Origin: a virus
Strand: one strand, 5' to 3'
IMG/VR virus record: IMGVR_UViG_3300035216_001220
Span: 1-39,788 of that record
Length of the DNA: 39,788 bases
Under the pieces are notes generated by a model. It was not told the origin of the DNA. It made no database searches and was given only the letters and a program-made list of their open reading frames with translations. The position numbers were made by a program, and so were the translations under genes. Positions 4,785 to 27,059 of this stretch are shown piece by piece. Within the stretch, counting starts at the first letter, position 1. Each line of letters opens with the position of its first letter.

Positions 4785-7202
4785 CTATTCATCAGTAAGT
4801 GGGTCTGAAGATTCTGTAAGTAGTATATTACTGCCTTCTGAAGTAATATTATCAATTAATATACTTTCATCTAAGAGGGTAGGTGAGTTCTCAGTAATAA
4901 GTGAGTCTAGGAACTCTGTAATTAGCTTATCGCTTTCTTCGGATAGGATATATGGATCTAAGGCGGTGTCTACAAAACCTGGATCAAAAAACGCATCGCC
5001 TTGTTTCCAGAGTCCGGCCGCCAGATAGGCATATTGAACTCTAGAGTTAAGCTTTGCTTGAACCCAGTAATTTGCTATGGACTGTACTAAGTCCCAAGAT
5101 TTTCCGTCTCTATTATAATAAAAAGGGAGCCTGAAAAATATGTTATCAGATTCCTCAGCAGTGGTGACTTTTGTTCTATCGGCCACTAATTGATTCTCAA
5201 AAGAACCAACTCTATAATGCTCTAAAGTCCCCACCTGAGGCATGTCATATTTTGTTGGCAAGAGGATAGGAGCATCTAGCTCTTGGGCTCTCAACCCGCT
5301 CTTTACTTGGAATTTCCCATTTTTAGAGATTATTTCTCCCTCTGTGTGGGCCTTAATTTTAAATAGACTAAATAAGAAGATGAGAGTTAAAATGCTTCCC
5401 TTAGATTCTCCTAGCCCATCCCATTCTTTTTTATATACAGAGATATCTTGAGGAGAAGTCGATGATAAATCTATTCCGAACAGGTCAATCTTATCATCTG
5501 GAGTATCTTCCTCATTTCTCCAAGGAGCCGCATTAAAGGGATGGAGGCTTAGCACCTCTCCTTTTATTGTTTTATACTCTTTATTATTTACTTCTTGCAC
5601 TAGCTCTCTATCAAACCATCCTAAAGAGTTTTTAATTAGTGCCCTTTTATATTCCGCTGCCCATTCTGTGTTCCAGACAGGAGCAGATAGGCCTACATGC
5701 TGAGCGAGCCAATCTAGGTTCTTAGGGCTACACTCTGTAGGATCTAAGTAGGTATAATAGAAATCTTCTATCTCATGCTTCTTCTCTCTTAAGAACTCGT
5801 CAGCACCAGCCAGCATCCACTTAGCAACAGGGGATTTTGGAAGCTGATCTTCTATTATCCTGGACCAAGACTTATCGTCTATAGGGGAATATAGTTCTTC
5901 TTTTGTTCTTGAAGAGTATAAAGGAGACATTTTAAATCTCCTTCGCTCGGTTTCGTCTGTTATCACTCTAGGTAAGAACTGATAAGAGATCTTCCTGTCA
6001 GATGTCGTTACCATTGTGCCGATCTCAAGAGAAGATATTGGCAGATTAAATCTATCTTGTTCTTTTGCAATTATTAATACTTCTTCGTATCCTTCTGGTC
6101 TGTAGCTATTTGAAGAGGCGGGTAGTCTCAGGTAAATAGGTCTTACTGACTCGTCAGATATATATCTAATACTCGATCTTTTAAGTCCGCTTCTAGTAAC
6201 TTGAGTAGTCTTTGTGAACAAAGATCTCATGTATCTGAACGTAGTGGTAATAAACTCTCTGTTTGTCTCATGTGTGGTATGCTTAACATCCCACTTTGCT
6301 TCCATATAAGACTTGACTTTCTCTTTCCAAACATCTGGTAAAGAAAATACTATGTCCTCAATAGAACTCATAACTTTTCTGTCCAGAGGGCTATCACATA
6401 TGGAGGAGTACGTAGGTCCAGTATTTAAAGCATAAAGGGTTTTATACCCTATGTCAATAATCTGTCTTATAAAATCTTCTTCTGTGGTTATTATACCATT
6501 TAATGTTTCGCTATTATCAAGAGCCATGGTCAAGTTAAAGAACTTAACGTAGGTGTCAGAGAATACGCTTCCTGCATATCCCACAGGAGGTAGGTATACA
6601 GTAGTATTTTTACTCGCTGGTTTATCTACAGATACCTCTGTGCCGTCAGGGTTTTGATGATTACCTCTGATAATAGTCTTTAGCTCTAAGAACTCTTTAC
6701 CGCCTATAAAGTACTCTAACTTTGCTCCATTATAAGTTGAGGCAGAGATGTATTTCCATTTGTAATTGCTAATCTTTTTCAGCTTTCCTATCAAACATTT
6801 CCCAGGCTTACAATCTTTGTCTGTACCATCGGTGCAGATCATCCCTTCTACAACACAATTTTCGTTTCCACCACTAAGATCTCCAGGTATGGGCTCTCCG
6901 TGGGCAAGCACGCTGTACTCTCCGTTAGCATCAGGGGACTGTAAATTATCTTCGGTGAAATAGACGTTCCCTACACTCTCATACGTAAAACCGGAGCTAT
7001 CTATCTTTTTTATATCTCTATCAATTACTTTATTTCTATCAGAGTTTAGCTCTAACTTGAAATTAAATCTCACCTCTCCTAAGGAGTGGTTTACAATCTT
7101 TAGTTTTTTTGTCCTTTCAAACTCCGACGTAAAGTGGGCTGCTTTAAATCCTCTACGAATAAATGCCCTGTTTTTCTGATCCCAAATAGATAAAGAGTTC
7201 AT
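4785..7202 (-). CDS. Baseplate protein with a P2 gpI-like (tail protein I) region
   Basis: 805 residues. The diagnostic part lies at about residues 465-545: WMLAGADEFLREKKHEIEDF, then a Pro-rich hinge, then LDWLAQHVGL, a Trp-containing stretch and ALIKNSLGWFDR. This follows the P2 gpI family, which joins baseplate wedge to tail fibres. The protein is several times longer than gpI. Residues 1-460 carry several Cys around 115-140 (C-x5-C and similar) and look like an added adapter; the C-terminal tail is acidic. One base separates it from baseplate J upstream and two from the fibre downstream, giving the P2 order J, I, fibre. The role follows from family and context; the N-terminal half is not recognised. 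Confidence 0.72.
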   Translation of the reverse strand: MNSLSIWDQKNRAFIRRGFKAAHFTSEFERTKKLKIVNHSLGEVRFNFKLELNSDRNKVIDRDIKKIDSSGFTYESVGNVYFTEDNLQSPDANGEYSVLAHGEPIPGDLSGGNENCVVEGMICTDGTDKDCKPGKCLIGKLKKISNYKWKYISASTYNGAKLEYFIGGKEFLELKTIIRGNHQNPDGTEVSVDKPASKNTTVYLPPVGYAGSVFSDTYVKFFNLTMALDNSETLNGIITTEEDFIRQIIDIGYKTLYALNTGPTYSSICDSPLDRKVMSSIEDIVFSLPDVWKEKVKSYMEAKWDVKHTTHETNREFITTTFRYMRSLFTKTTQVTRSGLKRSSIRYISDESVRPIYLRLPASSNSYRPEGYEEVLIIAKEQDRFNLPISSLEIGTMVTTSDRKISYQFLPRVITDETERRRFKMSPLYSSRTKEELYSPIDDKSWSRIIEDQLPKSPVAKWMLAGADEFLREKKHEIEDFYYTYLDPTECSPKNLDWLAQHVGLSAPVWNTEWAAEYKRALIKNSLGWFDRELVQEVNNKEYKTIKGEVLSLHPFNAAPWRNEEDTPDDKIDLFGIDLSSTSPQDISVYKKEWDGLGESKGSILTLIFLFSLFKIKAHTEGEIISKNGKFQVKSGLRAQELDAPILLPTKYDMPQVGTLEHYRVGSFENQLVADRTKVTTAEESDNIFFRLPFYYNRDGKSWDLVQSIANYWVQAKLNSRVQYAYLAAGLWKQGDAFFDPGFVDTALDPYILSEESDKLITEFLDSLITENSPTLLDESILIDNITSEGSNILLTESSDPLTDE

Positions 7203-26593: not shown

Positions 26594-26606
26594 ATACAAA
26601 TATAGA
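26578..26606 (+). promoter_or_regulatory. Weak candidate promoter for the riboswitch transcript
   Basis: TTGCTT (26578-26583), a 17-base spacer, and TATAGA (26601-26606). Both boxes are only partial matches, but the spacing is right and the start would fall about 20 bases before the riboswitch fold. Confidence 0.35.
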
Positions 26607-26629
26607 GGAAGTGTAAAACTTACTACGCT

Positions 26630-26682
26630 TCTTCCGTTCATCTCACTTTGTGAGACGCAAGTAAGTCGCGCAACGGAACGTT
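26630..26682 (+). promoter_or_regulatory. Glutamine-II riboswitch (downstream-peptide / glnA motif)
   Basis: The fold CGTTC (26635-26639) with GAACG (26676-26680) closes the element (P1). P2 is the perfect hairpin TCTCAC-TTT-GTGAGA (26641-26655). The joining segment GACGCAAGTAAG (26654-26665) and the end AACGGAACG are the conserved core of the glutamine-binding glnA/downstream-peptide RNAs known from Synechococcus, Prochlorococcus and a cyanophage. An alternative longer pairing TTCCGTT (26632-26638) with AACGGAA (26672-26678) also exists. P1 covers the only purine-rich ribosome-binding sequence (GGAA, 26675-26678) before the ATG at 26689, so glutamine binding should change translation of the peptide. 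I could not draw the third helix or pseudoknot with certainty. Confidence 0.87.
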
Positions 26683-26688
26683 GATCCC

Positions 26689-26850
26689 ATGATTGAATTT
26701 CTTTTATATTCATCACTCACATGCCAACAAGCTGATGCAATAATGCTGAGGATGAAAGCAAACGAGAATATCTCTAATGTTTTCAAGATAGAGTTGGTAG
26801 AGGTAGTAAAGGAATCTACACCTGAGTGTATCTGGGACGCAAACGACTGA
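26689..26850 (+). CDS. Downstream peptide controlled by the glutamine riboswitch
   Basis: 53 residues (starts MIEFLLYSSLTCQQADAIML, ends ECIWDAND). It begins 8 bases after the last P1 base of the riboswitch, the arrangement that gave the downstream-peptide motif its name. Pattern: a short hydrophobic start, T-C-x2-ADAI, a helical charged middle, and ESTPEC-x-WDAND, which I recall from other cyanophage and picocyanobacterial small proteins. Two conserved Cys (11 and 47) could pair. Function unknown; control by glutamine suggests it reports or adjusts host nitrogen status during infection. Confidence 0.82.
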   Translation: MIEFLLYSSLTCQQADAIMLRMKANENISNVFKIELVEVVKESTPECIWDAND

Positions 26851-26891
26851 AGGAACGGACTTAAAAATCCAACTACTTCAGGAGTACCAAA

Positions 26892-27059
26892 ATGAACACA
26901 CTCAATATGATCAAGAAGCAGATCGCGAGAGCCTCTGCTATCCACAATGCACAGATTACTCACACTACATACCGTGGTGTTACGTATGAAGTTAGCTGTG
27001 ATGGTTACGATGAGTCCCACGGAACATACTGTTATCGTGGTCGCATCTACACTAAATAA
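26892..27059 (+). CDS. Small DUF4278-type protein
   Basis: 55 residues (starts MNTLNMIKKQIARASAIHNA, ends RGRIYTK). A good ribosome binding site (AGGAG, 26880-26884) precedes the ATG. Two YRG-x-x-Y repeats, TTYRGVTYE and CYRGRIYTK, are the mark of DUF4278, a small family found in cyanobacteria and their phages. Function unknown. It lies between the riboswitch peptide and a terminator and is probably on the same transcript. Confidence 0.75.
   Translation: MNTLNMIKKQIARASAIHNAQITHTTYRGVTYEVSCDGYDESHGTYCYRGRIYTK

What the first reader, a model, noticed from the sequence alone, without database searches (positions are those of the whole stretch)
26630..26850. Phage glutamine riboswitch controlling a short peptide
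The sequence reproduces the glutamine-II core: P1 CGTTC/GAACG, P2 hairpin, GACGCAAGTAAG and the GGAACG end, 8 bases before a 53-codon ORF. Known: glnA and downstream-peptide RNAs bind L-glutamine, and the second occurs in marine picocyanobacteria and phage. The ribosome binding site lies in P1, so control is probably at translation. A phage sensing host glutamine, the signal of nitrogen status, and answering with a peptide of unknown function is a little-explored host-takeover circuit. In cyanobacteria a related riboswitch controls an inhibitor of glutamine synthetase, so the peptide may act on nitrogen assimilation.
Basis: partly seen in the sequence, partly recalled or inferred. Interest (0 to 1): 0.85.

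Follow-up and report, generated by a model that had tools for sequence, protein, structure and literature searches.

The report
Phage glutamine riboswitch wrapped around gene
A marine cyanobacterial virus carries an RNA sensor, probably for the amino acid glutamine, whose two halves lie on either side of a complete small gene, so the gene sits inside the sensor, and the sensor appears to control the next gene along; hundreds of related viruses share this layout.

Summary
The window comes from a T4-like cyanophage. The 26632-26685 stretch matches both glutamine riboswitch models below threshold, because it is only the 5' part of the element. About 160 related loci show the rest: the strand that pairs with CGTTC (26635) lies after the 53-codon ORF (GAACG, ending 26857). 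The whole is best read as one glutamine-I (glnA) type aptamer with the ORF filling a peripheral stem-loop (P4) inside it. P4 pairs in 98% of cells across 118 distinct ORF-bearing loci, with double changes; an inner hairpin flips G-C to C-G at least nine independent times. Natural ORF-less versions hit RF01739 above its cut-off (38-44 bits) in four loci. Some phages carry a second ORF inside P2. The gene after the aptamer is a DUF4278-like protein, the usual partner of host glutamine riboswitches; a covarying helix next to its ribosome site suggests glutamine turns it on. The 53-residue protein (phrog_504) is nested inside the sensor rather than being its simple target. Glutamine binding, polarity and the effect of translating the nested ORF are inferred. 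I found no description of this architecture in the papers held.

The parts
26635..26639 (+). P1, 5' strand (CGTTC)
   Evidence: Pairs with 26853-26857; 121/121 distinct relatives keep all five pairs
26641..26655 (+). P2 hairpin (TCTCA..TGAGA); in some other phages this loop holds another complete ORF
   Evidence: Covarying stem in 129 short-hairpin loci; an ORF of about 59-75 codons in the P2 loop in 28 of 160 loci
26656..26663 (+). Conserved core CGCAAGTA (5' side of the loop-E motif)
   Evidence: Aligned to the RF01739 consensus in ORF-less relatives
26664..26668 (+). P3, 5' strand (AGTCG)
   Evidence: Pairs with CGACT 26844-26848; 121/121 paired, almost invariant
26671..26683 (+). Inner hairpin SH (CAACG-GAA-CGTTG)
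   Evidence: First pair G-C or C-G, always matched; 9 independent switches on supported branches, p=0.004
26685..26689 (+). P4, 5' strand (TCCCA; its last base is the A of the start codon)
   Evidence: 98.0% of cells paired, 19 double-change cells; slid registers at most 65.6% paired
26689..26850 (+). Nested ORF, 53 codons, phrog_504: the P4 loop holds nearly all of it; its last codons (DAND, stop) are P4, core and P3 sequence
   Evidence: PHROGs hit 1.1e-29; third-position-biased substitutions; start and stop at fixed places in the RNA
26833..26837 (+). P4, 3' strand (TGGGA)
   Evidence: As for the P4 5' strand; the D-to-G change (WGAND) goes with T-to-C on the other strand in L111, L131, L149, L188
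26844..26848 (+). P3, 3' strand (CGACT)
26847..26852 (+). 5' strand of the putative expression-platform helix (CTGAAG), overlapping the stop codon TGA and the loop-E 3' side
   Evidence: Variable pair in 155 loci: G-C 71, A-T 47, G-T 37, A-C 0; independent pairs, median p=0.004
26853..26857 (+). P1, 3' strand (GAACG)
26876..26881 (+). 3' strand of the expression-platform helix (CTTCAG)
26880..26884 (+). Shine-Dalgarno-like AGGAG of the next gene, partly inside that helix
   Evidence: sequence
26892..27059 (+). 55-codon gene phrog_545, double YRG motif, DUF4278-like: proposed regulated gene
   Evidence: phrog_545 3.9e-29; PF14105 12.9 bits (cut-off 25.3) for this copy, 26.0 and 28.8 for two counterparts at the same place

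Best explanation
Window 26635-26857 is a glutamine-I (glnA) type riboswitch aptamer of a T4-like cyanophage with a protein-coding gene inside it. P1 (CGUUC:GAACG), P2, P3 (AGUCG:CGACU) and the loop-E strands form the aptamer core. The P3 arm carries a small hairpin and a stem P4 whose loop holds the 53-codon phrog_504 gene; its start codon touches the P4 5' strand and its stop codon overlaps the P3 3' strand. The gene read out in the usual way is the next one, a DUF4278-like protein. Without glutamine, CUGAAG pairs with CUUCAG beside the AGGAG of that gene and holds it off; with glutamine, CUGAAG is drawn into the aptamer core and the ribosome site is freed (an ON switch, as for cyanobacterial type 1 and type 2 glutamine riboswitches). 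Because the nested start and stop are built into the aptamer helices, a ribosome on phrog_504 and a folded aptamer should exclude each other, linking peptide synthesis and glutamine sensing in one RNA. Shown by comparison: anatomy, covariation, conservation, gene order. Inferred: ligand binding, ON polarity, competition with the ribosome, protein functions.
For: Natural ORF-less versions match RF01739 above cut-off across the whole composite: L092 43.6, L136 42.9, L120 40.3, L112 38.4 bits (cut-off 35), with P1, P2, AAGUA, P3 and (G)AAGGAACG aligned. In 121 distinct spliced composites P1 and P3 pair in all, SH in all but one cell, P4 in 121, 121, 121, 120 and 109. P4 around the ORF: 98.0% paired, 19 double-change cells, slid registers at most 65.6%. 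The SH pair switched at least 9 independent times together with its partner, p=0.004; the expression-platform pair likewise. The SH change breaks both P1 pairings of a two-aptamer reading in 21 of 121. Each of 142 distinct downstream proteins carries a YRG motif, and in 8 of 8 phage genomes the only DUF4278-like match is at this place. Host glutamine riboswitches are mainly linked to DUF4278 genes and activate on glutamine (PMC6316151). The element occurs once per genome in the 8 records tested. A sigma-70-like -10 box lies within 25 nt of CGTTC in 133 of 152 loci, mostly 7-9 nt away (background 0.12).
Against: The window's own score is below cut-off for both families. P1 is invariant and P3 nearly so, hence no covariation support for them; in the S-PM2-like group P3 would hold two mismatches. 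Two other ORF-less relatives (Bellamy 34.5, S-PM2 33.3) score just under cut-off and only on the second half. Unconstrained folding prefers the platform-helix state by about 5-6 kcal/mol in the window and L092, so the bound state must be paid for by the ligand. No binding or expression data. The window's own downstream protein scores only 12.9 bits to DUF4278. The window lacks the clear sigma-70 promoter of most relatives.
Confidence: 0.7

Rival explanations
1. Two tandem glutamine aptamers: unit 1 (26635 to about 26680) and unit 2 (CGUUG at 26679-26683 to GAACG at 26857), the second with the ORF in its P2 loop. The ORF is still inside an aptamer, but each unit binds its own glutamine.
For: Both halves carry CGUUCA..CGCAA..GGAACGG-type blocks, including the residues that contact or frame glutamine in glutamine-II (C1, G2, G18, C19, C39, G40, G41; PMC6698751). 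Unit 2 alone scores 34.5 bits to RF01739 in Bellamy and 34.0 to RF01704 in L112.
Against: 21 of 121 distinct relatives, like this window, carry changes that break the last P1 pair of both units while keeping the inner hairpin. Unit 1 alone scores only 18-25 bits in S-PM2 and Bellamy, less than the composite elsewhere. The loop-E strand AAGUA belongs to unit 1 and its partner GAAGGAAC to unit 2.
Confidence: 0.16
2. One reading: a glutamine riboswitch of about 52 bases upstream of, and controlling, the 53-codon ORF.
For: Local sub-threshold hits at 26632-26685; the ORF starts 8 bases on.
Against: The 3' P1 strand used is part of the inner hairpin. P1, P3 and P4 all have their 3' strands at or past the end of the ORF. 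ORF-less relatives keep the element, followed by the DUF4278-like gene.
Confidence: 0.06
3. A conserved translation-coupling or protein-binding leader derived from a glutamine aptamer that no longer binds glutamine: ribosome passage over phrog_504 alone controls the platform helix of the next gene.
For: The stop codon lies inside CUGAAG, so a terminating ribosome would free the next ribosome site. Third-position bias indicates that the ORF is translated.
Against: Core nucleotides are almost unchanged, also in ORF-less relatives that have nothing to couple, and those relatives pass the RF01739 cut-off.
Confidence: 0.08

Closest known systems
Glutamine-I (glnA) riboswitch, RF01739
   Same: P1 CGUUC:GGAACG, P2, AAGUA/GAAGGAACG strands, short P3, DUF4278-type gene downstream. 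An S-PM2 sequence (AJ630128) is among homologues used for this family (PMC6806525); S-PM2 carries the ORF-less form
   Different: P3 arm enlarged by an inner hairpin and a stem holding a whole conserved gene; in some phages a second gene in P2; not detected above cut-off when an ORF is present
Glutamine-II (downstream-peptide) riboswitch, RF01704
   Same: CGUUCA..CGCA..GGAACGG core; small-protein gene downstream; found in marine picocyanobacteria
   Different: Pseudoknot fold without loop E; the peptide gene lies after the aptamer, not inside it
umetE2 uORF inside the B12 aptamer of the M. tuberculosis metE riboswitch (PMC11260477)
   Same: A translated ORF within an extension (P9-P10) of a riboswitch aptamer, affecting the downstream gene
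   Different: A short uORF (+123 to +170 nt) in one species group; here conserved 53-66-residue protein families whose start and stop are fixed in covarying stems across hundreds of phages
Glutamine riboswitch of methylophage Melnitz (PMC9004378)
   Same: glnA-like RNA in a T4-like marine phage
   Different: Linked to ssrA/tmRNA; no nested ORF described in the passages read

Membership tests
Glutamine-I riboswitch (RF01739) | Model score at or above the gathering cut-off (35 bits) | tested here: inconclusive
   Window 24.6 bits, the model being split by the ORF; ORF-less homologues 43.6, 42.9, 40.3, 38.4; others 30-34.5
Glutamine-I riboswitch (RF01739) | P1 CGUUC:GAACG closing the junction | tested here: met
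   121/121, invariant, across the ORF
Glutamine-I riboswitch (RF01739) | P2 stem with covariation | tested here: met
   Pairs 1-3 paired in 127-129 of 129; pairs 3-5 far above shuffles
Glutamine-I riboswitch (RF01739) | P3 and loop-E strands AAGUA / GAAG | tested here: inconclusive
   Sequence and pairing present in 121/121 but nearly invariant; the S-PM2-like group has two mismatches
Glutamine-I riboswitch (RF01739) | Selective binding of L-glutamine | not testable with these tools
   Needs in-line probing or calorimetry
Glutamine-II riboswitch (RF01704) | Model score at or above cut-off (33 bits) | tested here: not met
   Window 23.5; one relative, L112, reaches 34.0 on its second half
Glutamine-II riboswitch (RF01704) | Peptide ORF downstream of the aptamer (for phrog_504) | tested here: not met
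   phrog_504 is enclosed by P1, P3 and P4
DUF4278 (PF14105), gene 26892-27059 | Score at or above 25.3 bits | tested here: not met
   12.9 bits for the window copy; counterparts 26.0 and 28.8, several at 24-25. Hence 'DUF4278-like' only

The most novel reading that the evidence does not exclude
A metabolite-sensing aptamer that carries one or two complete, conserved protein genes inside its own helices, with start and stop codons as part of covarying stems, so that translation of the nested gene(s) and ligand binding compete on one RNA and together set expression of the third gene.
Probability: 0.6. Interest if true: 0.88.

Novelty: new variant of a known kind. Interest (0 to 1): 0.8.

Why it matters
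It would be a riboswitch architecture in which genes are nested inside the sensor. It is widespread in cyanophages that infect abundant marine photosynthetic bacteria, and is missed by covariance-model annotation because the gene splits the model. It points to a phage DUF4278-like protein, of the kind related to the N-terminal part of the glutamine synthetase inhibitor IF17, as the glutamine-controlled product, which makes phage manipulation of host nitrogen status directly testable. It also warns that aptamers with gene-sized loops may be hidden elsewhere.

Tried and rejected
Tandem-aptamer reading: my first model, kept as a rival; lowered by the 21/121 changes that break both units and by composite hits above cut-off. 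Mobile repeat or cassette: rejected, one element per genome in the 8 records tested, with no reversed-control hits. Host origin: the 3' core pattern gives 3 hits among 84,980 bacterial/archaeal genomes; one (Nonlabens contig) is 99% cyanophage P-TIM40 over the 8 kb compared, and the other two are on MAG contigs that carry the same phage-type element. Function of the nested protein: AlphaFold gives a helical hairpin, pLDDT 81, with no structural match at E<=0.001 and no PDB sequence match of weight. DUF4278-like protein: model weak, pLDDT 66. The WT1-AS_7 hit at 5502-5796 is far below its cut-off. Searches of the held papers for glutamine riboswitches in phages and ORFs in aptamers found no account of this arrangement; Klahn 2018, Ames and Breaker 2011 and Ren 2015 are not held.

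Full report
1. The observation. The sequence described is present. cmscan finds RF01739 (24.6 bits, cut-off 35) and RF01704 (23.5 bits, cut-off 33) at 26632-26685, each below threshold. The window is a 39,788-base virus record with ribonucleotide reductase, thymidylate synthase, tail fibre and HNH genes; its nearest annotated relatives around this place are Synechococcus phages such as S-TIM5.

2. The element is larger than claimed. Relatives from IMG/VR show a fixed order: promoter, CGTTCATCC, P2, GGACGCAAGTAAGTCGCGGAACGGAG, CGTTCATCCC, ATG, ORF, TGGGACGCAAACGACTGAAGGAACGG, then a Shine-Dalgarno site and a small YRG protein gene. The conserved C-terminus DAND and the stop codon of the ORF are encoded by the conserved RNA itself: the ATG is at offset 10 from CGTTCA and the stop ends at offset 13 of the 3' core in 144 of 154 loci. 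Six loci have no ORF there, only a short loop, as have the isolates Bellamy and S-PM2.

3. One glutamine-I aptamer with a gene inside. In four ORF-less loci RF01739 matches above cut-off across the whole composite, with 38-48 bases in the P3 loop. This sets P1 as CGUUC (26635-26639) with GAACG (26853-26857), and P3 as AGUCG with CGACU. In 121 distinct spliced composites P1 and P3 pair in every case, the inner hairpin in every cell but one, and P4 in 121, 121, 121, 120 and 109 of 121. In 118 distinct ORF-bearing loci P4 has 98.0% of cells paired and 19 double changes, against at most 65.6% and 10 when the register is slid. One change alters the protein: TGGGGC for TGGGAC (D to G) goes with CACCCC for CATCCC on the other side of the ORF. 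The inner-hairpin pair switched at least nine independent times on supported branches, the partner always following, p=0.004. Those changes break the last pair of both P1 helices in a two-aptamer reading, so I prefer the composite. In both readings the ORF is inside an aptamer. P1 itself is invariant and P3 nearly so, so these two rest on the family match, not on covariation.

4. A second nested gene. In 28 of 160 loci the P2 loop also holds an ORF of about 59-75 codons; 27 of these have both ORFs. There too start and stop codons fall in or at the stem (TCTTA..TAAGA, TCTCA..TGAGA, TCCTA..TAGGA), with 85.7% of cells paired and 12 double changes against at most 53.3% and 4 when slid. S-TIM5 is such a case.

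5. The gene controlled. Each of the 142 distinct downstream proteins listed carries a YRG motif; two of six counterparts tested pass the DUF4278 cut-off, three sit just under it, and the window copy is weak. In eight phage genomes the only DUF4278-like match is here. A review states that cyanobacterial glutamine aptamers are mainly linked to DUF4278 genes, that DUF4278 covers the N-terminal part of IF17, and that both riboswitch types activate expression on glutamine binding (PMC6316151). Between the aptamer and this gene, CU(G/A)AAG can pair with CUU(C/U)AG next to the Shine-Dalgarno site; the variable pair is G-C 71, A-U 47, G-U 37, A-C 0, with independent changes in step. CUGAAG is needed by the aptamer (end of P3, loop E), so the two helices exclude each other. 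Folding gives the platform helix as the free state and the aptamer 1-6 kcal/mol above it in the window, L092 and L120, and slightly below it in L112. This predicts an ON switch; polarity is an inference.

6. The nested protein. phrog_504 is found in 318 phage records; substitutions fall mostly on third codon positions (8457, 4383 and 16491 for positions 1, 2 and 3). It and its replacements share a hydrophobic start and two cysteines, and it is predicted as a helical hairpin. Its function is unknown. My most likely reading is that its synthesis is coupled to the sensor: initiation needs P4 open and termination occupies P3 and loop E, so glutamine binding and translation compete. That step is not shown.

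7. Known or new. Glutamine riboswitches in cyanophages have been noted (PMC9964418, PMC9602691), and S-PM2 contributes to RF01739 homologue sets (PMC6806525). The nearest precedent for an ORF inside an aptamer is the short umetE2 uORF of M. tuberculosis (PMC11260477). I found no account of conserved protein genes nested within the covarying stems of a riboswitch aptamer; the held library lacks several key papers, so this is absence in what was searched.

Noticed in passing
upstream of the element in most relatives, e.g. L084, L102, L118: The -10 box TATAAT lies inside a palindrome GGTCTATAATAGACC; its role (operator?) is unknown.
   Followed up: partly
L073, L172, L186, L196, L204 upstream of the aptamer: These lack the sigma-70 box and have a T4-late-type TATAAATA followed by a hairpin instead, so the same switch may be driven early in some phages and late in others.
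   Followed up: partly
L017, L031, L036, L148, L224, L243 (and others), between the aptamer and the next gene: An inserted conserved hairpin ACGGATCC..GAGAAGGTT; a second type CGGATCAC..GTTAAAGGAGAA in L176, L180, L189. No Rfam match seen in the loci scanned.
   Followed up: partly
L215 (NZ_RMVE01000006.1): A 188-kb contig in the Nonlabens xiamenensis assembly whose first 8 kb are 99% identical to cyanophage P-TIM40: likely contamination.
   Followed up: yes
L157, L198 inside the element: Foreign sequence inserted right after GGAACGGAG, interrupting the inner hairpin.
   Followed up: no
L227-L236, S-PM2 (L250): A divergent group with AGCCGACU (or near it) on both P3 strands, giving internal mismatches in P3.
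   Followed up: partly
window 26606-26634: A possible GGAAG..CTTCC hairpin directly before the aptamer, shared with L040; S-TIM5 has a different one at the same place.
   Followed up: no
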